This document shows, in pieces, positions 1,076 to 14,455 of a DNA stretch of 64,000 bases; the first letter of the stretch is position 1, and the number at the start of each line of letters is the position of its first letter. Both the position numbers and the translations under genes were made by a program. Source of the DNA: an uncultured Eggerthellaceae bacterium. Its GTDB lineage: Bacteria; Actinomycetota; Coriobacteriia; Coriobacteriales; Eggerthellaceae. The notes below the pieces were generated by a model, which saw nothing but the letters and a program-made list of their open reading frames with translations, was not told the DNA's origin and searched no databases. The stretch covers positions 1 through 64,000 of the forward strand of contig CALULI010000006.1 of assembly GCA_944321455.1 (NCBI GenBank), in the 5' to 3' direction.

Positions 1076-2017
1076 CGCGCGGCGGCTGATTGGATTTCGG
1101 AGCGTTATCGGCAAACCGCTTGTGACAATTGCCCAGGAACGGCAAGCGGCGATTCGAGGATAGCTATAAACAGCCGATTCGCATGAATCGGTCAGTTTCC
1201 AAGCCGCCTGCGACTATTCCCAAGTGCGAATCGGGGAGTCGTAGCGCGCATAATGTCTAGAATCGGAAAATTATGCAACTATCCCCGCCCTCTCGAATCA
1301 ACCTTTGATTCAGAATTGATTCGGACGATACGACGTGAGATAGCACCTTATGGACGATAAGACACGCAACAACACGCCATGCAAGCGTGCAACGATCGAG
1401 TGGGAATAGGACATAGACCTAGGTCAGAGGCTTGTTTTTCCGTCCGTTGTGTCCTTTTGATGACGCTATGTACGGAAAATGCGCATAGCCACTAGCGCAA
1501 AATGGGAATAAATTCCGTACCACAACCCCCGATTTCACACAAATCGGGGGTTTCTTTTTCCCATACGACCTGCGAATCCTTCCTCCGTTTATTCCCAACT
1601 CCCGTACACCGCGAACAGCGCGACAGCCAGCGGACGCGAAAACGGCGTTTCTTGGGGGAATAAAATGTCCCAGTAGGTTGTCCCACTGCCCAAAATGACC
1701 CCGTGAAACTCAAATGAAACTCAGCAGTTGAAATACGGTGGCTTTTTCACGAAACCCCAGGTCAGAAATAGGGAGTAAAACTTTACTCCCCTCGGGGTGC
1801 TTTCAGGGCTTTTTCTGTGGGATTAGCCCGTTTGAACGCAGCCTGGGAAGCTCGGTTTTATTCCCAAACTGCAATCATGTGGAGCGAGCTTCATCACATC
1901 GATAAAAATCACGACTCATTTAGGCATGATTGGGATTAGTCTCCATCACCACATATTTTCCTACAAGCCGAATATTGCGCTTGATTTGTCCTGGCGAAAC
2001 GAACCCTATAATCTAAA
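1076..2017. other. Long stretch without convincing genes
   Basis: No frame here looks like a conserved protein. The stretch holds a structured element ending in a terminator (1398-1556), a perfect palindrome GGGAGTAAA-ac-TTTACTCCC (about 1769-1789), and five copies of a TGGGAATAAA-like word on both strands (1401, 1503, 1588-1597 reverse, 1653-1663, 1856-1866 reverse). The same word recurs at 5895 and 14296. The 73-aa minus-strand frame at 1492-1713 runs through the terminator and is not credible. Confidence 0.5.
1398..1560 (+). ncRNA. Candidate structured RNA, copy A, ending in a terminator
   Basis: The element opens with GAGTGGGAATA. It then has a stem TTTTCCGT (1436-1443) with ACGGAAAA (1472-1479), a conserved block GCG-AGCCAC-AG just after the stem, and a terminator ACCCCC/GGGGGT followed by TTTCTTTTT (1525-1556). 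Copy B at 14293-14455 has the same order and nearly the same length (about 152 against 150 nt from first word to last G). One stem pair changes from C-G to T-A between copies, which supports a real RNA structure. I recognise no known RNA family; it resembles part of the GCAAAGCCAC strand of c-di-GMP-I riboswitches but lacks the rest. Confidence 0.45.
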
Positions 2018-4027: not shown

Positions 4028-5299
4028 ACAGCAAACTCATCGACCCGAGCGACATTGCAAGGGATGCCGCGGATTTCGGAAGAAGCGATTCCGCTGACGA
4101 CCTCGCATTCATATCGTCCTGGTCAGATGCACTGCCCACTCCTCTCATGAAATACGTCTCCTGGTTCTCGACGCAGGGAAATAATACGAAAAAGGACAAC
4201 TTCAAAATATCCGAAAGCCCCACTCTCCCAGTTCCCAGCAAGACGCTGCACGAAGAGGCAAAACGAATAAACGCCCTCGCCGAAAAAAACAGTCTCAGAC
4301 TGGCCTCGCTCCGTCGTCTCTCACTACTTGGACGAAGATGATTCCAAGCAGCTAGTCAGCCTCTTAAGAAAACTGAGCGCAGCCACTTTTGACGACGCCC
4401 TTGCAAAATTCGTTAATAGTGAATCAGCCGTGCGAGCAAACAGCATCCTGGCCAAACTAAAAGCTTCTATCGATAGAAAATCTGGAACCGTTTCAAAACC
4501 TAGCTCAACAGGATTCTTGGAATTCGTAGCAAAACGTATTGAACTAAAAGGTCGCCTCGATAGAATCGCAGCAACTATCGCGCCAGCTGTTTTATCGGAA
4601 AGCACTTACCTCGGAACATTAGAGGACAAAGGGGAACTTCGCCTTGTCTCCCAAAAGAGATTCCTTTGCAAAGACTCTAGAACCGATGAGTTCTTAATAG
4701 GAATTAGCAAGCTTAAAGCTTGGAAGGCCGCCTTTGAAAGAGTCGCTGAATCCATCTGGGCTGACAATCTTCCTCATGAGATAGCAATGCTTTGCACTGA
4801 ATCGCAGCAGTCGAGCGTGTCGTCTGCCAACGATTTTATCGGAACGTCAAGATTTGTGACGTTCTCCGATGGGAAAACAAAATACGAGCCCTCTGACGGG
4901 GAGAAGGGCATCCTGGTGATCGAGAGGAAGTTACGGGAGGATGCCGATGTATATCTGCTAGACGAGCCGGAACTCGGCATGAGCAACCTTTATGTTGACA
5001 AGGTGATACGTACGTGAGTCCAGGAATTGGCTGCAGAGGGTCATACCGTCGTTGTTTCTACCCACAATGCGAACCTCGCCGTCAGGACTTTGCCCTATCT
5101 GTCCCTATATAGAGAACATGTTGATGGGCTTACGTTTAAGACCTACATAGGAAACCCGTTTGTCAACAAGTTAGTCAGTATAGAAGACCCACTCGACGAA
5201 AAGGAGTGGAGTTTCGTCAGCATGACGACTCTTGAAGGCGGACCAGAAGCCTTTTACGATCGAGAGACAATTTACGAGGCAGGCATACATGATAATTAA
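4021..5299 (+). pseudogene. Broken AAA/ABC-class ATPase, C-terminal part
   Basis: Three stretches appear to belong to one protein. They are 4021-4310 in one frame, 4311-5017 in the next frame (…SHYLDEDDSKQLVSLLRK…), and 5018-5299 continuing in that second frame after a TGA at 5015-5017. The end carries a Walker-B/D-loop YLLDEPELGMSN (about 4950-4985) and the switch histidine STHNANLAVRT (about 5058-5090), as in large SMC-like ATPases of defence loci. The N-terminal half with Walker A is missing, replaced by an IS3 scrap. A missing 5' end, one frameshift and one in-frame stop all point to decay. A separate start at TTG 5027 would only give a fragment. Confidence 0.7.
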
Positions 5300-5864: not shown

Positions 5865-6017
5865 GAGACTGAGACAAACGATTTAACTATTGAGTGGGAA
5901 TAAAATAGCCTAAAACTGTATTACTTATCATTAGTGCCCTAGAATCTTTCTGGGGCATATTTGTATCAATTAATTACATATAGCCAGCAGCAAACCACCA
6001 GTTCATTTGAATATTTA

Positions 6018-6054
6018 CACATCATATATACGCGAAAATCGTATATATGATGTG
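6018..6054. repeat. 15-bp perfect inverted repeat
   Basis: CACATCATATATACG (6018-6032) and its exact reverse complement (6040-6054) flank a 7-nt A-rich centre. No T-run follows, so a terminator is unlikely. A protein-binding palindrome or recombination-related site fits better. Confidence 0.7.
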
Positions 6055-6113: not shown

Positions 6114-6137
6114 ATTGGTACCCATTTGATACCCATT
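6114..6137. repeat. Left copy of island-flanking inverted repeat
   Basis: ATTGGTACCCATTTGATACC plus CATT matches, in inverted orientation and with one inserted base, the segment at 14186-14210 on the far side of the hsd locus. A further GGTACCCA lies at 6148-6155. Confidence 0.6.
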
Positions 6138-6247
6138 GAATCCATCTGGTACCCAACTTAAATCTTTAACTGGGATTTTAATTATTGTTGCATCCATTAA
6201 TCTGAACCGTTTAAAGCATGAATAAAATTTAAGTTTCAAGTCATTCC

Positions 6248-7684
6248 ATGTATTCCGTTTCCGATGGGTCGCACTATGAGAAGAGAATCGATGCCAAAGG
6301 TCGCGTGCTGAGCGACGAGTGCATCGAAGACGAGATACCGTTCGAAGTGCCCGCAGGATGGGAGTGGGTGCGTATGAGGACGGTATTGAGAAAACTTACC
6401 GACGGTTCCCATAATCCACCTCCAAAGCAAGATGCTGGCTATCCGGTAATTAGCGCTATCAACATCAAGAATAGAAGAGTCGATTTAGACTTAACGATTC
6501 GCTATTGCGATGAGGAAGGTTTTGCAAAAGAGAATCCCCGTACTGACATTTGCTCCGGCGACATAATCTTGGGAATCATTGGTGGCTCTATCGGCAACGT
6601 CGGCATTTTCACCTCTGAGAAAAAGGTAATTGCTCAGCGCAGCGTTGCTGTGATCGATTCTTTCAACTGTAATGATTATCTTTCGTATGCCCTTGAGTCG
6701 CCATTGTTCTTTGGTTACTACAAAGATGCATCTGGTACCGCGCAGGGCGGAATATATCTTGGTTTGTTGGGGGAAATGTTTCTTCCTTTCCCACCGCTTG
6801 CCGAACAGCACCGTATTGCTGAGCGGGTTGAAGAACTCATGCCTCTTGTTGACGAGTACGGTGCGCTCGAAAAAGCTCGCAAGGCGCTCGACTCAGAGCT
6901 TCCCGAGCGCCTGTGCAAGTCGGTTCTGCGGCAGGCGGTCCAAGGACAGCTCGTACCGCAGGACCCCTCGGACGAGCCCGCCTCGGTTCTGCTAGAACGC
7001 ATCCGCGAGGAGCGGACAAAGCTCGTCGCCGAGAAGAAGGCAAAATTTCCCAAAGGCGGCGAGTCGGTTATCTACCGTGCTTCCGATGGTGGCTACTATG
7101 AGAAGCGCATTGATGCCAAGGGATGCTTGCTGAGCGAAGAGTGCATCGACGACGAGATACCGTTCGAGATCCCGGAGAGTTGGGAGTGGGCGAGGCTTGG
7201 CAATCTCCTATCTGTCGTTAGCGATGGAACGCACAAGACACCTGATTACAAGGACGAAGGTGTCTTGTTTCTCTCTGTGCAGAATATTTCAAAAGGCTAT
7301 TTTGATTTGGATAAAGTCAAATACATAAGCCAGGAGACGCATGCGGAATTATGCAAACGAGTGAAACCTCAAAATGGAGACATCCTTTTATGCAGAATCG
7401 GCACATTAGGAAAGCCTATCATCGTTAATGTTGACTACGAGTTCAGCATCTTCGTTAGCTTGGGTCTTCTTAGGCCAATTAAGCATGAACTTGCTGAATG
7501 GATTGTTGCTTGCATCGACTCGCCGCTAGGTCTCGATTGGATAGAAGCGATTAAGGTTGGTGGAGGAACTCATACCTTTAAAATCAATCTTGGTGATATT
7601 CCTTTATTCTTGATTCCCGTTGCACCCCTCGCTGAACAACAGCGAATCGTAGATCGTTACAACCAGCTATCTATGCTGTTATAG
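6248..7684 (+). CDS. Silent HsdS specificity cassette (5'-truncated)
   Basis: 478 codons holding two target-recognition domains, each introduced by the same module (SDGxxYEKRIDAKG, then an EIPFE(V/I)P and WEW motif) and closed by PLAEQxRI. The central spacer carries EELMPLVDEYGALEKARKAL and VQGQLVPQDPSDEPAS. Compared with the expressed copy at 8515-10107 it lacks the first ~50 residues (MKAKDLKNSILQMAVQGKLV…) and begins exactly where the inverted repeat begins. ATG 6248 has no ribosome-binding site, so it is probably not expressed in this orientation. It serves as a donor of alternative DNA-recognition domains. It faces the expressed hsdS with the recombinase gene in between. Confidence 0.85.
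   Translation: MYSVSDGSHYEKRIDAKGRVLSDECIEDEIPFEVPAGWEWVRMRTVLRKLTDGSHNPPPKQDAGYPVISAINIKNRRVDLDLTIRYCDEEGFAKENPRTDICSGDIILGIIGGSIGNVGIFTSEKKVIAQRSVAVIDSFNCNDYLSYALESPLFFGYYKDASGTAQGGIYLGLLGEMFLPFPPLAEQHRIAERVEELMPLVDEYGALEKARKALDSELPERLCKSVLRQAVQGQLVPQDPSDEPASVLLERIREERTKLVAEKKAKFPKGGESVIYRASDGGYYEKRIDAKGCLLSEECIDDEIPFEIPESWEWARLGNLLSVVSDGTHKTPDYKDEGVLFLSVQNISKGYFDLDKVKYISQETHAELCKRVKPQNGDILLCRIGTLGKPIIVNVDYEFSIFVSLGLLRPIKHELAEWIVACIDSPLGLDWIEAIKVGGGTHTFKINLGDIPLFLIPVAPLAEQQRIVDRYNQLSMLL
6259..6283 (+). repeat. Inverted repeat IR1, left copy
   Basis: A 25-bp exact match (TTCCGATGGG…ATGAGAAG) to the reverse strand at 9898-9922. It lies at the start of the first recognition domain in both hsdS copies; weaker identity continues for about 90 bp. 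Confidence 0.9.
6961..7107 (+). repeat. Inverted repeat IR2, left copy
   Basis: Two exact blocks, 6961-7026 (66 bp) and 7070-7107 (38 bp), match the reverse strand at 9122-9187 and 9041-9078. The 43 bp between them differ at only a few positions. The repeat covers the spacer between the two recognition domains and the start of the second. Confidence 0.92.
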
Positions 7685-7724
7685 TAAGCAGCATAATCCT
7701 TCATGTTGGACGAAAGGGGTCAAT

Positions 7725-8528
7725 ATGAGAGATTACAAAGCTTACTTGATTAAAAAGGATTTTTCTATTCATACGATAGATGCTTATATCTATGCAATCC
7801 AACAAATGAAAGAAAGAATTGGCGTTACACCATCCAGTGCAGATTTATTAGAACATAAAGAATGGCTGATAGCGCATTTTGCAATCAAGACAGTGAATTT
7901 ACGCATCACTGCTATAAACTCTTATCTTGATTTTCTTAATCACCAAAGCATACGACTAAAGAGCCTTCGAGTGCAGCAAAAGTTCTACCTTGATAATGTA
8001 ATTTCTCAAGAAGAATATGAGCTTTTGCGTGATTCGCTCAAACGCGATGGAGAACTATTTTGGCATTACGTAGTGCGCTTTCTTGCTTGTACCGGTGCGC
8101 GAATAAGCGAGCTTCGTCAGTTTACGGTGCAATCAGTATACATAGGTCATCTTGACATTGTTTCTAAAGGACAGAAGTTAAGACGAATTTACATACCTTC
8201 CAGCTTACAGAAAGACACTTTAATCTGGCTTCAAGCACTTGAACGCGCAGATGGGTTCATCTTTGCTACAAAAAGCAGCTCACCTATGACAGCAAGAGGA
8301 ATATCGTTAGGCTTGAAACGCTTTGCTAAAAAGTACGGGGTCAATCAGGACGTTGTATACCCTCATTCATTTCGACATCGATTTGCTAAAAACTTTATTG
8401 AACGAAATCCCGATATAGCGTTTCTTGCTGACCTTATGGGGCACGAAAGCATAGAGACAACAAGGGTTTATTTGCGTCGTACTGCAATGGAACAACGTGA
8501 GACTGTTGATGCAACTATTGATTGGTGA
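7725..8528 (+). CDS. Tyrosine recombinase (probable hsdS invertase)
   Basis: 267 aa. An N-terminal SAM-like core-binding domain (to about residue 95) precedes a catalytic domain with the expected residues: Arg in TGARISEL, Lys in SKGQKLRR, HxxR in HSFRHRFAK, His in LMGHESIETT and nucleophile Tyr in RVYLRR. GAAAGGGG upstream of ATG 7725 is a good ribosome-binding site. The gene lies between two oppositely oriented hsdS copies and its last 14 bp overlap the 3' end of the expressed hsdS. This is the layout of recombinases that shuffle type I specificity genes in streptococci and Bacteroides, so it most likely inverts the DNA between the IR1 or IR2 repeats. Confidence 0.9.
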   Translation: MRDYKAYLIKKDFSIHTIDAYIYAIQQMKERIGVTPSSADLLEHKEWLIAHFAIKTVNLRITAINSYLDFLNHQSIRLKSLRVQQKFYLDNVISQEEYELLRDSLKRDGELFWHYVVRFLACTGARISELRQFTVQSVYIGHLDIVSKGQKLRRIYIPSSLQKDTLIWLQALERADGFIFATKSSSPMTARGISLGLKRFAKKYGVNQDVVYPHSFRHRFAKNFIERNPDIAFLADLMGHESIETTRVYLRRTAMEQRETVDATIDW

Positions 8529-10107
8529 GATAGGCAAAGACTTCATTAACTCGCCTTGCTATGCGACGCTGCTCGGTGAGGGGCGGGAGTGGTGTCAAAA
8601 CATCCGATATCTTTGAAACTGACAAACCTGGCTGAGCGGTCGCTGTGGCGTATTGGTTGAGGTTTAGTCCCGTGAGAATCAACCCCGCCCATTCGTCTCC
8701 AACGCCACCGAAACATGAGACGACTACAGCATGCTCCGTTGCATAAAACGGACCTTCAGCGTAGTTCACGCAGCCGCACAATGCTCCTTGTCGGCCAATT
8801 ACTTGATGAGATTCAAATCGATTCGCCTCTGCTACAAAACCGCGAACACCGTTGCCACCAAAACAGGGAATGGCCTTTTCAGCGGAAGGAGTATCGTCAA
8901 TCAGAGAAGCTGAGATGTTTTTTCCAGCCTGCATATCAAAAAGACATCCAAGCCTCACCCATTCCCATCCCTCGGGCACCTCGAACGGAATTTCATCATC
9001 TATACATTCATCACTCAATACACGCCCTTTTGCATCAATTCGCTTCTCATAGTAGCCACCATCGGAAGCACGGTAGATGACCGACTCACCGCCCTTGGGG
9101 AACTTGACCTTCTTCTCGGCAACGAGCTTTGTCCGCTCCTCGCGGATGCGTTCTAGCAGAACCGAGGCGGGCTCGTCCGAGGGGTCCCGCGGTACGAGCT
9201 TACCCTGTACAGCTCGTTGCAGCACCGATTTTTGAAGACGTTCGGGCAGCTCAGAGTCGAGAGCCTCACGCGATTCCTCGAGGACGCCGTATTCGTCAAC
9301 GAGGGGCATAAGTTCTTCAACCCGCTCAGCGATGCGACGCTGCTCGGCAAGGGGCGGGAGGGGAATTAATGCAGAGTTCAACGATGTCTTTGAAAGGTTA
9401 TAGAATGCTTGACCGGATTTTTTGACCCTTGCCCTGCAGAACGAAACATGGGGAGGTGACGTCAGGTATCTGAGGAGATATTCAGAATGCCAGTCTATCT
9501 CGAGATATGGCGTTAAGAAAAAGACAAAGCCTCCGCATACAGTGTTGCCATCGGCGGTTCTAACAATGGCTGCCTTTCCGACGTTTTCCAAGCTAGTGAC
9601 CGCAGGTGTAATAATCTGTCCATTTTGGAGAATCAGGTCATCGTCAACGAACTGCGAAGATATCATTACATCATTGTCTTTGATGATTGGAGTATCCGCC
9701 TCTCCGATATTACCGCCGCGAAGGACTCTCATCATGCAATCGTCCTTTACAGCAAGGTTATCCTTCTTATAGCCGAGACCGCTGTTGAGCTCAAGCGCAC
9801 TTCCCAGTCGAGCCCATTCCCATCCATTCGGAATCTCGAACGGTATCTCATCATCGATACACTCGTCGCTTAACACATGCCCTTTGGCGTCAATCCGCTT
9901 CTCATAGTGCGACCCATCGGAAGCGCGATAGATGACAGACTCTCCGCCTTTAGGAAACTTAATTTTCTTTTCAGCAATTAACTCTGAACGCTCTTTACGA
10001 ATCCGTTCAAGTAATACACTTGCGGGTTCATCATTAGAGTCCTGAGGCACAAGTTTGCCTTGTACCGCCATTTGAAGAATTGAGTTCTTAAGATCCTTCG
10101 CCTTCAT
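8515..10107 (-). CDS. hsdS: Type I restriction specificity subunit HsdS (expressed copy)
   Basis: 530 aa, full length. It begins with MKAKDLKNSILQMAVQGKLV, then an EYEKRIDAKG-type lead-in, recognition domain 1 (about residues 95-265), a central helical spacer (PLAEQRRIAERVEELMPLV…SVLQRAVQGKLV), a second lead-in, recognition domain 2 (about 385-510) and the closing PLTEQRRIARRVNEVF. HsdS reads the two halves of the target sequence and places HsdM and HsdR on DNA. ATG 10107 follows the hsdM stop directly, so translation is coupled. Its recognition domains differ from those of the silent cassette at 6248, while lead-ins and spacer are shared as inverted repeats. Confidence 0.92.
   Translation of the reverse strand: MKAKDLKNSILQMAVQGKLVPQDSNDEPASVLLERIRKERSELIAEKKIKFPKGGESVIYRASDGSHYEKRIDAKGHVLSDECIDDEIPFEIPNGWEWARLGSALELNSGLGYKKDNLAVKDDCMMRVLRGGNIGEADTPIIKDNDVMISSQFVDDDLILQNGQIITPAVTSLENVGKAAIVRTADGNTVCGGFVFFLTPYLEIDWHSEYLLRYLTSPPHVSFCRARVKKSGQAFYNLSKTSLNSALIPLPPLAEQRRIAERVEELMPLVDEYGVLEESREALDSELPERLQKSVLQRAVQGKLVPRDPSDEPASVLLERIREERTKLVAEKKVKFPKGGESVIYRASDGGYYEKRIDAKGRVLSDECIDDEIPFEVPEGWEWVRLGCLFDMQAGKNISASLIDDTPSAEKAIPCFGGNGVRGFVAEANRFESHQVIGRQGALCGCVNYAEGPFYATEHAVVVSCFGGVGDEWAGLILTGLNLNQYATATAQPGLSVSKISDVLTPLPPLTEQRRIARRVNEVFAYLTNQ
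9041..9187 (-). repeat. Inverted repeat IR2, right copy
   Basis: Exact inverted partner blocks 9041-9078 (38 bp) and 9122-9187 (66 bp) of the left copy at 6961-7107. Recombination here would flip 7108-9040 and exchange the second recognition domains. Confidence 0.92.
9898..9922 (-). repeat. Inverted repeat IR1, right copy
   Basis: Exact 25-bp inverted partner of 6259-6283. Recombination here would flip about 3.6 kb and exchange both recognition domains behind the fixed hsdS start. Confidence 0.9.
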
Positions 10108-11589
10108 CTAAGCCTCAATCCCTAATATCTCGCAAATCTGCTGCAATTTTGCATCGATTTCTCGATCAAGAGTCTCCCTACGCGCACGATAATCTTTTAT
10201 AAGTTCATCAGGAGGCAATATTTCTTCTTCATCATGAGGAAATCCGCATTGATCAAAATTAAGCTGAAGTCCTTTTAGTTCATCAGCAGTGAAATATTGT
10301 GCTTTAAGGTTTCCATCAACCTCAATTTCCTCTCGGTTTTCCCACCACTCAATAATCGGATCGAAATGCTTAAGTTGGATAGGCTTTGTTTTGCTAAAGT
10401 GCTTATACCCTTCAGGCATATCCATACGGTAAAACCAGGTGCCTTCTGTTTTCTTCCCGTTTTCAAAGAAGAGTATATTTGTCGTAATAGATGTATAAGG
10501 CGCAAAAACACTTCCTGGCATACGAATAATGGTATGCAAATTGAAATCCTCAAGAAGTTTTCTTTTTAGTTCAAGCTTCGCTCCATCGGAACCAAATAAG
10601 AAGCCATCTGGCAAGATAACAGCAGCCCGTCCGTTCGGCTTAAGACGATACATAATGAGCGCCATAAAAAGATCAGCTGTTTCAGAACTACGAAGCGCTA
10701 CAGGAAAATTAGCTTTAATAACATCTTGCTCTTTACCTCCATAAGGTGGGTTCATTAATACCACGTCAAATGTTCCGTCAACCTGCTGATTACGATATTC
10801 GCGAATATCCCTATCGAGTGAATTGACGTGAAACACTCGAGGATTATCAATATCATGCAAAAACATATTCGTTGCACATAGCAAATATGGCAATTGTTTC
10901 TTCTCTAAACCATATACGCTCTTGCCATATTGAATTCGATCTTCGGGAGTTTTTACTTGGTTTTCTAGGATCTTTAACGCTGATGTTAGAAAGCCACCAG
11001 TGCCACAAGCAAAATCAGCAACGGATTCTCCAAGCTGTGGATTAAGCCGTTGTGCCATGAAATCAGTAACGGCACGAGGTGTATAAAACTCACCGGACTG
11101 TCCAGCAGCCTGCAAGTCTTTCAAAATCGTTTCGTACACTTCACCAAAAGCATGAAGCTCTTTATATTCGGTAAAGTCAATTTCTTCGTTGATCGTATTG
11201 ATGACGCGACGCAACAAAATACCATCTTGCATGTAGTTGTGTGCAGATTCAAATGCGTAACGGACAATTGCCTGTCCCTGCGTCGTGGACTTTGTGATAG
11301 TAAGGTTTGCGAGTGTAGGAAATAAATCATTATTGACAAAACTAAGCAGCTGCTCGCCCGTTAGAGCTTTGCCATCACCGTTATCTATGGCCCAATTACG
11401 CCATTTCAGTTCATCAGGAATTATCGACTCATAATTATCTTGAACAAGTTCCCAGTCTTCTTCTTTGGCATCATATATCTTGAGGAAGAACATCCAAACC
11501 ATCTGTTCAATACGCTGCGCATTGCCATTCACACCCGCATCTTCACGCATGATATTTTGAATTTTTTTAACTAAAGCTCCTACTGCCAT
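10108..11589 (-). CDS. hsdM: Type I modification methyltransferase HsdM
   Basis: 493 aa, normal length. An N-terminal HsdM_N helical domain precedes a class I methyltransferase fold with the SAM-binding motif FACGTGGFL (about residue 195) and the catalytic NPPY tetrad (MNPPYGGKEQD) of adenine-N6 methylases. It transfers a methyl group to adenine in the half-sites chosen by HsdS, and it is part of the restriction complex with HsdR. AAGGAG lies 10 bp upstream of ATG 11589. It sits between hsdR (22-bp gap) and hsdS (no gap), evidently one operon. Confidence 0.95.
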   Translation of the reverse strand: MAVGALVKKIQNIMREDAGVNGNAQRIEQMVWMFFLKIYDAKEEDWELVQDNYESIIPDELKWRNWAIDNGDGKALTGEQLLSFVNNDLFPTLANLTITKSTTQGQAIVRYAFESAHNYMQDGILLRRVINTINEEIDFTEYKELHAFGEVYETILKDLQAAGQSGEFYTPRAVTDFMAQRLNPQLGESVADFACGTGGFLTSALKILENQVKTPEDRIQYGKSVYGLEKKQLPYLLCATNMFLHDIDNPRVFHVNSLDRDIREYRNQQVDGTFDVVLMNPPYGGKEQDVIKANFPVALRSSETADLFMALIMYRLKPNGRAAVILPDGFLFGSDGAKLELKRKLLEDFNLHTIIRMPGSVFAPYTSITTNILFFENGKKTEGTWFYRMDMPEGYKHFSKTKPIQLKHFDPIIEWWENREEIEVDGNLKAQYFTADELKGLQLNFDQCGFPHDEEEILPPDELIKDYRARRETLDREIDAKLQQICEILGIEA

Positions 11590-11611
11590 GTTTATGTTAT
11601 CTCCTTAAGGC

Positions 11612-13921
11612 CTACGCTACCATGCGGTATAGCTCATTCTCCAATGCCTGAGCGGCACGAAGGTATTGTTCTTTGCCGCCAAAAATTTTAACAATATTAG
11701 GAACAGAACCTATTGCCTGGAACTCCTTCAACTGCAAGATTCCCATATCATCAAGATCAACAATCTGAGCAGTTGCATATTTGTCCAACAATGCATTTAA
11801 GACAGCCCGAGCAGCATCACTAAACTGATCAAGATAACCGCTTTCGCGTACTGCTTGTGCTCTTTCCCTGCGAGTCATTGCGGGCACATCGTAAGCAAAA
11901 TGACAGATAAGATCAAAGTCATCAAGATCATCACGCCCAGTCTGATCACGAAGCTGTTTAAGGAAAATTCCTTGTTTCTCTAACTCTTCGCAAATAGCTG
12001 CTTTTTTATCCTCACTATTCCAACGGTTGATAAAATCATCAAGAGTATTGAATTGCTTATGCATATTCTTCTTTGTGTAATCAACAAGACTTTCCGTGTG
12101 AAGTGAACCATCCCAATAGTATTGAACCTGCTCTCCAACAACATCCACTTCAAGGGAAGAGACGTAATATTTAATCTTGGATTCAGACGGATCAATAGGC
12201 AAAGAAGGCTTTTCTCGAGTGGGCTTATCCTCGTCTCCAGAAGAAAAAACAACAGGTGGGTCGCCATCAAAATCAGGATCTGCAAACAAGCGTGTCGCAT
12301 CTTTGAAGTCTAGCACTGTAAAGAAAAGCTTCCCCTTATCTTCCTTGATACGAGTACCACGACCTACAATCTGCTTAAACTCTGTCATGCCCTGCTCGCC
12401 AAAGCTGTTGTCCAAGACAATACATTGACAAGTCTTGCAATTTACACCTGTAGTAAGAAGCTTCGATGTGGTAAGTATTGTCGGAAAACGCTCATCCACA
12501 TCCATAAACTTATCTAGAATCGCCGAAACACCATGAACATCGCCAGTACAACGTTGAATGTAATCAGGATGCTCCTGAACAACGTCGGAGTTTTCATTAA
12601 CTAGAGCTTGTCGCATGCGTTCTGCATGATCAATATCCTCACAAAACACAATAGTTTTCTGAAAACGCCCTTCACGTTTCAAGTACTCAGTTATATGTTT
12701 TGCAACAACGACATCACGCTGCGTAAATACTATTGTGCGATTGATGTCTTTTTGTGTATATTCGCGCTGCTCGATTTCCTGACCCTTGTCATCAACTTGG
12801 CCAGCTTCAGGAATAAACCCAAACTTGTCGACATCGATATGAATTCGCTTGACACGATATGGAGCGAGAAAACCGTCCTCAATACCTTGTTTAAGAGAAT
12901 ATGTGTAAAGTGCATCACCAAAATAGTTATGCGTAGAAACCTCTTTGGTTTCTTTTGGAGTCGCAGTCATGCCTAACTGTATTGCTGAGCTGAAATATTC
13001 TAAAACACGACGCCAACTTGAATCTGCCTTTGCACTTCCCCGATGGCATTCGTCAACGATGATGAAATCAAAGAAACTAGGGTCGAGTTGCTCATAAGGT
13101 TGTGGCGCATTAGGATCATCTTTATCCTCATTCACAAGCTGCTGATAAGAAGAAAAAAATACTTCATATGCACTATCGAGATTTTTGCCTTGAACTTTCG
13201 TTGTCACACTATTAAGTGGCTTAAAATCACCAGATATCGTCTGATCTAAGAGAACATTGCGATCTGCCAGATAAAGAACCTTGCTAATAAGTCCGGCTTT
13301 ACGCAAACGCCAAACTATCTGGAATGCTGTGTAAGTTTTACCGGTACCAGTTGCCATAACTAAAAGCATGCGCTTCTGACCTTTAGCAACTGCTTCAATT
13401 ACACGATTGATAGCAATCCGCTGATAGTAACGAGGTGTTATAGACTCATAACTGAAATAGTAGGGCTCCCTAACTTTTTCCGACTGTTCATTAGTGAGAC
13501 CATGCGCGCTACAATGACGACTCCATAGGTCATTTGGAGAAGGAAACTCATCGAGCGGAATCTCCCGTTCCTTTCCGGTAGTCATATCATGCTCCATGAA
13601 AGCATGACCATTAGAACTGTAGGCAAAATCTACATCAAGAATCATGGCATATTCGATTGCTTGCTGCAGCCCATGACCAACAGTTTTCTGATAGTCCTTT
13701 GCTTCTACCACTGCCAAAGGTTGATTAAGATCCGGCCAGCAAAGTTGATAGTCGGTCTTATTGCCTTGATTAACACGAGAACCTTGTCCATTTGCAATAG
13801 CAATCTTCCCGTCAGTAAAGAAAAAATCCTCACAAGAAATATGATCAAGATCCCAACCCGCCTCTTGCAATGCTGGTGTGATATAGCGGAGCTTAGTGTT
13901 TTCCTCATTAATGGCCGTCAT
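11612..13921 (-). CDS. hsdR: Type I restriction endonuclease subunit HsdR
   Basis: About 769 aa from the start at ATG 13921, which has AGGGGAAAA upstream; the open frame extends to 13987 but that N-terminus is unlike the family. An N-terminal nuclease domain shows TDYQLCWPD, VVEAKDYQKT (the D…ExK motif) and a QQAIEYA helix. A helicase core follows with Walker A MATGTGKTYTA, a DECHRGSA box, TATPKE, and a C-terminal helicase half with IVGRGTR. HsdR translocates DNA with ATP and cuts unmethylated foreign DNA. It is the first gene of the operon. Confidence 0.95.
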   Translation of the reverse strand: MTAINEENTKLRYITPALQEAGWDLDHISCEDFFFTDGKIAIANGQGSRVNQGNKTDYQLCWPDLNQPLAVVEAKDYQKTVGHGLQQAIEYAMILDVDFAYSSNGHAFMEHDMTTGKEREIPLDEFPSPNDLWSRHCSAHGLTNEQSEKVREPYYFSYESITPRYYQRIAINRVIEAVAKGQKRMLLVMATGTGKTYTAFQIVWRLRKAGLISKVLYLADRNVLLDQTISGDFKPLNSVTTKVQGKNLDSAYEVFFSSYQQLVNEDKDDPNAPQPYEQLDPSFFDFIIVDECHRGSAKADSSWRRVLEYFSSAIQLGMTATPKETKEVSTHNYFGDALYTYSLKQGIEDGFLAPYRVKRIHIDVDKFGFIPEAGQVDDKGQEIEQREYTQKDINRTIVFTQRDVVVAKHITEYLKREGRFQKTIVFCEDIDHAERMRQALVNENSDVVQEHPDYIQRCTGDVHGVSAILDKFMDVDERFPTILTTSKLLTTGVNCKTCQCIVLDNSFGEQGMTEFKQIVGRGTRIKEDKGKLFFTVLDFKDATRLFADPDFDGDPPVVFSSGDEDKPTREKPSLPIDPSESKIKYYVSSLEVDVVGEQVQYYWDGSLHTESLVDYTKKNMHKQFNTLDDFINRWNSEDKKAAICEELEKQGIFLKQLRDQTGRDDLDDFDLICHFAYDVPAMTRRERAQAVRESGYLDQFSDAARAVLNALLDKYATAQIVDLDDMGILQLKEFQAIGSVPNIVKIFGGKEQYLRAAQALENELYRMVA

Positions 13922-14292
13922 AATTCTATTTTCCCCTGAGAGAAAGCTTGTTAGTAACATCTTCCTAAGTTTACTATATCCACGCAATCTACCTGCGAAT
14001 TCATGAAATTGTATGCCTGTTTATTAAGGTGGAAATGCCACGTAAACTTTCAAATCATATTGTTTTTACAGAAATGATCAGCATAAACAGCTAGCAGGCT
14101 TGCCTACTAGGACAAGAAATGTAGTCTAAACCCTTATCCTGCATCTCAGCAGAGGAAAACATGAGTGACTAAAACAGAAATATCTAATGGGTATCAAATG
14201 GGATACCAATAATAGCAGCATTATTTAGTAGAAGAAACAAACAGTAAGATTCTAAGACACTATATACCACCATGGAGACGTCTAATAATATC
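13922..14292. other. Upstream region of hsdR
   Basis: Holds the promoter region of the hsd operon (not resolved), the right copy of the flanking inverted repeat (14186-14210) and no credible gene. Confidence 0.4.
14186..14210. repeat. Right copy of island-flanking inverted repeat
   Basis: AATGGGTATCAAATGGGATA plus CCAAT is the inverted counterpart of 6114-6137, with one extra base. Together they bracket the complete hsd locus. Confidence 0.6.
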
Positions 14293-14455
14293 GAGTGGGA
14301 ATAAATCTTCTACCCTTCGAATTGCGGTTTTTTCGTCTGTGACGTCCCATATAAAGTGCTGTAATGTACGAAAAAGCGTAAAGCCACCAGTATCTTTCAA
14401 GAATAAAACTTATAAACCCCCTGAAATCACTCGATTCAGGGGGTTTCTTTATGCG
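14293..14455 (+). ncRNA. Candidate structured RNA, copy B, ending in a terminator
   Basis: Same architecture as 1398-1560: GAGTGGGAATA start, stem TTTTTCGT (14329-14336) with ACGAAAAA (14368-14375), the block GCGTAAAGCCACCAG, AATAAA, and a terminator CCCCCTGAA…TTCAGGGGG then TTTCTTT (14416-14450). Like copy A it lies just beyond the 3' end of a minus-strand surface-protein gene, in convergent orientation. Confidence 0.45.

What the first reader, a model, noticed from the sequence alone, without database searches (positions are those of the whole stretch)
6248..13921. Invertible type I restriction system with two hsdS cassettes and its own recombinase
The sequence shows a complete hsdR-hsdM-hsdS operon. 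It also shows a second, start-less hsdS in inverted orientation and a tyrosine recombinase between them. Exact inverted repeats lie at the start of recognition domain 1 (6259-6283 / 9898-9922) and across the domain 1-2 spacer (6961-7107 / 9041-9187). Inversion at IR2 would swap the second recognition domains, and inversion at IR1 both, so four HsdS specificities are possible from one locus. The lead-in of domain 1 also resembles that of domain 2, so further exchanges might occur. Phase-variable hsdS loci are known in streptococci and Bacteroides; a fully equipped one here would make this strain switch its methylome and phage resistance.
Basis: partly seen in the sequence, partly recalled or inferred. 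Interest (0 to 1): 0.85.

Follow-up and report, generated by a model that had tools for sequence, protein, structure and literature searches.

The report
Self-inverting type I restriction specificity locus
A gut actinobacterium carries a DNA-cutting defence system whose target-recognition gene can be reshuffled by a built-in recombinase, and comparison with relatives suggests that six variable bases inside each recombination site decide which parts may be swapped with which.

Summary
An intact type I R-M operon (hsdR-hsdM-hsdS, EcoAI/type IB-like) faces a promoterless, N-terminally truncated second hsdS, with an intact Xer-like tyrosine recombinase between them. One correction: IR2 is not exact (139/147; exact runs of 66 and 38 bp). 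The real elements are four copies of one 25-bp site, TTCCGATGG-N6-CTATGAGAAG, unique in the genome, at the start of each recognition domain. The two TRD1 sites share spacer GTCGCA and the two TRD2 sites share TGGCTA. The arms are frozen at nucleotide level in recombinase-bearing loci of three Coriobacteriia families and mostly decayed in hsdS genes without the recombinase. In 17 loci, including many Bacillota, outer pairs with outer and inner with inner, never across. I infer that the recombinase binds common arms and needs matching spacers, so TRD1 swaps only with TRD1 and TRD2 only with TRD2. All four predicted HsdS forms are open and in frame; cross-register events would damage hsdS. Related loci carry the recombinase in both orientations. 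Inversion in this strain is not shown (no reads). The kind is known (pneumococcal cod/SpnIII, S. suis four-way switch); the spacer register rule I did not find described.

The parts
11612..13921 (-). hsdR, type I restriction subunit (EcoAI-like), 769 aa from the ATG at 13921 (longer ORF to a TTG at 13987)
   Evidence: NCBIfam restrict_EcoAI 1025 bits vs cut-off 550; Walker A, DECH and VEAK motifs present, no internal stop
10108..11589 (-). hsdM, N6-adenine methyltransferase subunit, 493 aa
   Evidence: Pfam N6_Mtase 7e-64, HsdM_N; FACGTGGF and NPPY motifs
8515..10107 (-). expressed hsdS, 530 aa, two TRDs
   Evidence: Methylase_S, two stretches; EcoKI HsdS structure match 4.1e-15
6248..7684 (+). 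silent hsdS', open but without the N-terminal segment; donor of two alternative TRDs
   Evidence: Methylase_S, two stretches; alignment to active copy
7725..8528 (+). Xer-like tyrosine recombinase, inside the invertible segment; 3' end overlaps the active hsdS 3' end by 14 bp
   Evidence: Phage_integrase 4.7e-22; catalytic residues; XerA/XerD structures
6259..6283 (+). recombination site 1 (silent copy), spacer GTCGCA
9898..9922 (-). recombination site 1 (active copy), spacer GTCGCA
7081..7105 (+). recombination site 2 (silent copy), spacer TGGCTA
9043..9067 (-). recombination site 2 (active copy), spacer TGGCTA
6271..9910 (.). 3,640-bp segment predicted to invert at site 1 (swaps TRD1 and TRD2)
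   Evidence: in-silico inversion keeps frame
7093..9055 (.). 1,963-bp segment predicted to invert at site 2 (swaps TRD2 only)
   Evidence: in-silico inversion keeps frame
5892..5904 (+). 13-bp direct repeat GAGTGGGAATAAA at the left border of the module
   Evidence: only two copies in the genome; a similar end in a same-genus genome
14293..14305 (+). 13-bp direct repeat GAGTGGGAATAAA at the right border of the module

Best explanation
[quoted passage not shown] The recombinase encoded between the two hsdS genes binds the common arms (TTCCGATGG ... CTATGAGAAG) at all four sites. Strand exchange in the 6-bp spacer needs sequence identity, so only site 1 x site 1 and site 2 x site 2 recombine. 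Site 2 inversion replaces TRD2 of the expressed hsdS, site 1 inversion replaces TRD1 and TRD2 together, and both in sequence replace TRD1 only, giving four DNA specificities and so four methylomes and restriction patterns. Different spacers keep the two registers apart and prevent deletions or fusions that would damage hsdS. Shown from sequence: gene content, sites, spacer rule in relatives, codon freeze, open frames of all four products, both orientations among related loci. Inferred: recombinase activity, cutting position, spacer-matching requirement, expression, switching in this strain.
For: Four exact sites, unique genome-wide. The same arms with paired spacers occur in orthologous loci of Adlercreutzia, Enorma, Collinsella and Coriobacteriaceae/Atopobiaceae MAGs: GTCGCA/CGGCTA, GTCGCC/CCGCCG, CTCCCC/CCGCCG (names). 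The outer-outer and inner-inner rule holds in 17 loci including Bacillota, with no outer/inner match (that script keeps spacers found on both sides, but the protein-anchored list, made without that condition, shows no counter-example). Site codons are frozen: TCC 36/39 and GAT 38/39, TAT 39/39, GAG 38/39 in recombinase-bearing loci found by protein similarity, most of them GC-rich, against TCC 1/6, GAT 1/6, TAT 1/6 in related hsdS without the recombinase; flanking Arg uses five codons. Pattern found in 13 of 398 class genomes, reversed-pattern control in none. Four in-frame HsdS products; cross-register products of 245, 262 and 821 aa. Both orientations of the recombinase relative to hsdM, 15 to 5. 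TRD families silent in one species are active in another (e.g. L058 TRD2 active, 89% to L059 TRD2 silent). In the A. dolichus draft each flank is joined to both ends of the same 4,296-bp segment.
Against: No reads, methylation data or second strain of this species, so inversion here is not observed. IR2 could also recombine through RecA, so the recombinase may not be the only agent. Spacers are coding bases (SH versus GY), so part of the site 1/site 2 difference could reflect protein constraint. One hsdS without a recombinase nearby (G013) keeps one exact site, and another (G026) at a contig end does too.
Confidence: 0.85

Rival explanations
1. The inverted repeats recombine by RecA-dependent homologous recombination; the recombinase is incidental or acts elsewhere.
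For: 418-nt arms at 82% with a 66-bp exact run. In pneumococcus, less frequent PsrA-independent inversions at the long repeats are reported (PMC7096588).
Against: IR1 offers only 25 exact bp; the frozen 25-bp motif with paired spacers, its association with this recombinase family and its decay without it point to a site-specific enzyme.
Confidence: 0.1
2. A locked relic: once invertible, now fixed, with the silent copy kept only by chance.
For: One arrangement in the single assembly held; silent copy without visible ribosome-binding site.
Against: All four sites exact, both silent TRDs open and in frame after inversion, recombinase intact; a relic would be expected to decay.
Confidence: 0.08
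3. The 25-bp conservation reflects protein constraint on the SDGxxYEKR lead-in, not a recombination site.
For: The motif lies in a conserved peptide of HsdS.
Against: Synonymous codons are fixed against local codon usage (GAT and TAT are often 7-30% of Asp/Tyr codons in the GC-rich loci), and protein-similar lead-ins without recombinase use GAC/TAC.
Confidence: 0.03

Closest known systems
Pneumococcal cod / SpnIII (Spn556II) locus with tyrosine recombinase PsrA (PMC4948785, PMC7096588)
   Same: Type I operon, silent hsdS genes in inverted orientation, a local tyrosine recombinase, inversion at repeats bordering TRDs; PsrA is reported to need IR1-like sequences inside the other IRs.
   Different: Pneumococcus has three hsdS genes and three IR pairs; here two hsdS and two site classes. 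A two-class spacer scheme was not found in the papers I could search; the pneumococcal sites themselves could not be compared here.
Streptococcus suis four-way inverting type I system (described in PMC7394358)
   Same: Two hsdS genes, IR before the 5' TRD and between the TRDs, four HsdS products.
   Different: Other phylum; site not dissected to arms and spacer in the text read.
Xer recombinases and dif-like sites
   Same: Closest solved structures are XerC-like/XerA/XerD; near-palindromic 11-6-11 layout with 8 of 11 matching arm positions.
   Different: Recombinase is encoded in the segment it is predicted to flip; four sites inside coding DNA, two spacer classes.
Mycoplasma pulmonis hsd inversion with HvsR (cited in PMC4948785)
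   Same: Tyrosine-recombinase inversion of hsdS genes.
   Different: Different site and locus layout (not compared by sequence here).

Membership tests
Type I restriction-modification system, EcoAI (IB)-like | hsdR, hsdM, hsdS adjacent and intact with catalytic motifs | tested here: met
Inverting (phase-variable) type I R-M locus | Second, distinct hsdS in inverted orientation sharing inverted repeats that border TRDs | tested here: met
Inverting (phase-variable) type I R-M locus | Local site-specific recombinase with intact catalytic residues | tested here: met
Inverting (phase-variable) type I R-M locus | Alternative arrangements in a clonal population | not testable with these tools
   No reads for this strain. 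Indirect: both orientations in related loci; doubled flanks in the A. dolichus draft
PsrA-type recombinase | Catalyses hsdS inversion at a core shared by all IRs | tested here: inconclusive
   Shared core found in all four repeats; activity not testable; pneumococcal sequence not at hand
Xer/tyrosine recombinase superfamily | R-K-H-R-H-Y active site | tested here: met
   R126, K148, H214, R217, H240, Y249

The most novel reading that the evidence does not exclude
A natural spacer code: one recombinase runs two orthogonal site classes within one gene pair, sharing arms and differing in the 6-bp spacer, so the domains of a two-domain recognition protein are shuffled only within register. The rule would be general for this recombinase family across phyla and would predict from sequence alone which hsdS segments are exchangeable.
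Probability: 0.65. Interest if true: 0.65.

Novelty: new member of a known kind. Interest (0 to 1): 0.5.

Why it matters
It adds Coriobacteriia, including Collinsella, Adlercreutzia and Enorma, to the bacteria expected to rewrite their own methylome and phage restriction pattern, relevant to strain-level variation, transformation barriers and phage sensitivity in gut communities. The site definition gives a genome-scan signature for exchangeable hsdS cassettes, and the spacer rule makes testable how a shuffling system avoids deleting its own domains. It also suggests a natural counterpart of engineered orthogonal lox sites.

Tried and rejected
The viral contig collection has no copy of the exact site. 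Same-genus genomes lack the module, so no strain comparison was possible. Literature searches for hsdS inversion in Eggerthella or Collinsella and for a spacer rule in hsdS inversion found nothing specific; the NAR 2020 survey of epigenetic invertons, known to me from memory, is not held (DOI guessed), so prior description of such loci in Coriobacteriia is not excluded. First-pass codon statistics selected sites by the motif itself and were partly circular; they were replaced by a protein-anchored search. Structure prediction was judged unnecessary.

Full report
Observation. The window holds hsdR 11612-13921(-), hsdM 10108-11589(-), hsdS 8515-10107(-), a tyrosine recombinase 7725-8528(+) and a second hsdS 6248-7684(+). 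HsdR matches the EcoAI family model at 1025 bits against a cut-off of 550, and the HsdR, HsdM and recombinase motifs are intact. The second hsdS aligns with the first from about 12 nt upstream of the first repeat and lacks the N-terminal segment; no ribosome-binding site is visible before its ATG. IR1 is exact over 25 bp. IR2 as given is 139/147, with exact runs of 66 and 38 bp inside 418-nt arms of 82% complementarity. The 66-bp run is unlikely if mismatches were spread at random, while the IR1 run alone is not significant by that test.

What the repeats contain. All four repeats hold the same 25-bp string TTCCGATGG-N6-CTATGAGAAG at the first codons of each recognition-domain lead-in. It occurs exactly four times in the window, none expected by shuffling, and nowhere else in the 1.55-Mb assembly with up to three mismatches. 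Extended by neighbouring bases it is a near-palindrome of Xer/dif geometry, 11-6-11, with 8 of 11 arm positions matching. The two site-1 copies share spacer GTCGCA, the two site-2 copies TGGCTA; they differ in 5 of 6 bases.

Relatives. A class-wide search for the recombinase found homologues of 42-73% identity. Most of those above 50% lie between hsdS genes of a type I operon with HsdM about 70% identical to the window's; two lie beside a distant type I subfamily, HsdM 27-28%. A named-genome scan gave 80 loci, among them Adlercreutzia, Enorma, Collinsella, Gordonibacter, Lachnospiraceae, Erysipelotrichaceae, Prevotella and Treponema. In the Coriobacteriia orthologues the site arms are almost letter-perfect and the spacers pair by register: GTCGCA/CGGCTA, GTCGCC/CCGCCG, CTCCCC/CCGCCG. 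A degenerate silent site in L059, with 3 arm mismatches, still keeps its spacer. In Bacillota the same layout reads GATAAT-6-TATGARAAG, with site-1 spacers such as TTGCCT or ACTCCT and site-2 TCTCAT or TCTTAT. Over 17 loci with both classes paired, outer matches outer and inner matches inner, never across. That script only keeps spacers present on both sides, so identity within a class is partly a selection; the protein-anchored list, made without that condition, shows no counter-example. In the named Bacillota genomes nearly all pattern hits lie in the hsdS locus.

Nucleotide-level constraint. Anchoring on protein similarity rather than on the motif, lead-ins of recombinase-bearing loci use TCC 36/39, GAT 38/39, TAT 39/39 and GAG 38/39. 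Six comparable lead-ins without a recombinase nearby use TCC once, GAT once and TAT once, for example GCG GAC ... TAC TAC GAG AGG in G325. GAT and TAT are minority codons in most of these GC-rich loci. The exact pattern occurs in 13 of 398 class genomes and its reversed control in none. In three genomes without a strong recombinase hit (G206, G241, G294) several sites lie close to contig ends (27-98 bp in four cases), as expected for an unresolved repeat or mixed orientation.

Mechanism. Simulated crossing-over inside the spacers gives four arrangements, each with a complete HsdS from the hsdM-linked start: 530, 547, 536 and 519 aa. Cross-register events give a 245-aa deletion product, a 262-aa product or an 821-aa fusion. 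The spacer difference is therefore well placed to keep the domains in register. That the enzyme requires spacer identity is inferred from general tyrosine-recombinase biochemistry (established knowledge; orthogonal lox sites rest on it, PMC10850332 in the search), not shown here.

Evidence that such loci do switch. Among loci with hsdS on both sides, the recombinase, which lies inside the invertible segment, points one way relative to hsdM in 15 and the other way in 5. TRD families silent in one species are active in another: TRD2 of L058 (active) is 89% identical to the silent TRD2 of L059, and the TRD1 pairs of L059 and L061 are reciprocally active and silent at about 63%. In the draft of Amedibacillus dolichus DSM 3991 a 4,296-bp hsdS-recombinase-hsdS segment is present on two contigs at 100%; the hsdR-hsdM flank is attached to both ends on one, the distal flank to both ends on the other. 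This is what a culture with both orientations would give, although a repeat-driven misassembly is not excluded.

Register crossing over evolution. The silent TRD2 of the window is 79% identical to the active TRD1 of L058 and 73% to the silent TRD1 of L065, each of which has its own register's spacer. Domains have thus moved between registers between species, probably by homologous recombination downstream of the site.

Known or new. The kind is known: pneumococcal cod/SpnIII with PsrA, S. suis, and many loci in REBASE (PMC4948785, PMC7096588, PMC7394358), and homologues in many phyla were noted in PMC4948785. IR1-like sequences inside the longer pneumococcal repeats were reported as needed by PsrA (PMC7096588). 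I found no description of the two-class spacer rule or of these Coriobacteriia loci in the papers available; an important survey is not held, so absence is not proof.

Module borders. A 13-bp direct repeat GAGTGGGAATAAA, only twice in the genome, flanks the module at 5892 and 14293. A same-genus genome carries the sequence left of it ending in the same 18 bp ACTATTGAGTGGGAATAA, and different DNA follows. The module looks like an 8.4-kb acquired unit at an attachment-like end; it is absent from the three same-genus genomes held, which are 63-81% complete.

Noticed in passing
window 5892-5904 and 14293-14305: 13-bp direct repeat, only two copies in the genome, bordering the R-M module; a same-genus genome (L189 about 1648-1665) has the left end followed by other DNA, suggesting an integration hotspot or attachment site.
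   Followed up: partly
L191 (G402 C16) and L192 (G402 C17), Amedibacillus dolichus DSM 3991: The same 4,296-bp invertible segment sits on two contigs, with each chromosomal flank joined to both ends; probably both orientations in one culture, or a misassembly.
   Followed up: partly
L091, L092, L104, L109, L112, L145, L088: Bacillota loci carry a third, recombinase-proximal site-2 copy preceded by a stop codon (L*SSHYEK), apparently an extra silent TRD2 cassette, so more than four specificities.
   Followed up: no
L080 6911-11657 and L146 5911-12512: Relatives of this recombinase in Lachnospiraceae sit beside a flagellin gene and choline-binding surface proteins instead of hsdS, so the family may also flip surface genes.
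   Followed up: partly
L058, L065 and window 7081-7684: The same TRD family occurs in register 1 in some species and register 2 in others (73-79% identity) while the site spacer stays with the register.
   Followed up: yes
window 4328-5299: Split reading frames of an AAA/ABC-type ATPase-like protein (DEPELGMSNLY ... VVVSTHNANLAVRTL), apparently a broken gene beside the R-M module.
   Followed up: no
window 6018-6054: Perfect 15-bp inverted repeat with a 7-bp loop (CACATCATATATACG) upstream of the silent hsdS; possibly a terminator or operator.
   Followed up: no
window 6121-6148 and 14175-14202: 28-nt inverted repeat (82%, 17 bp exact) flanking the whole R-M module just inside the direct repeats.
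   Followed up: no
window 1870-1972: About 100-bp sequence repeated (75-83%) near the starts of contigs 4, 5 and 9 of the same assembly.
   Followed up: no
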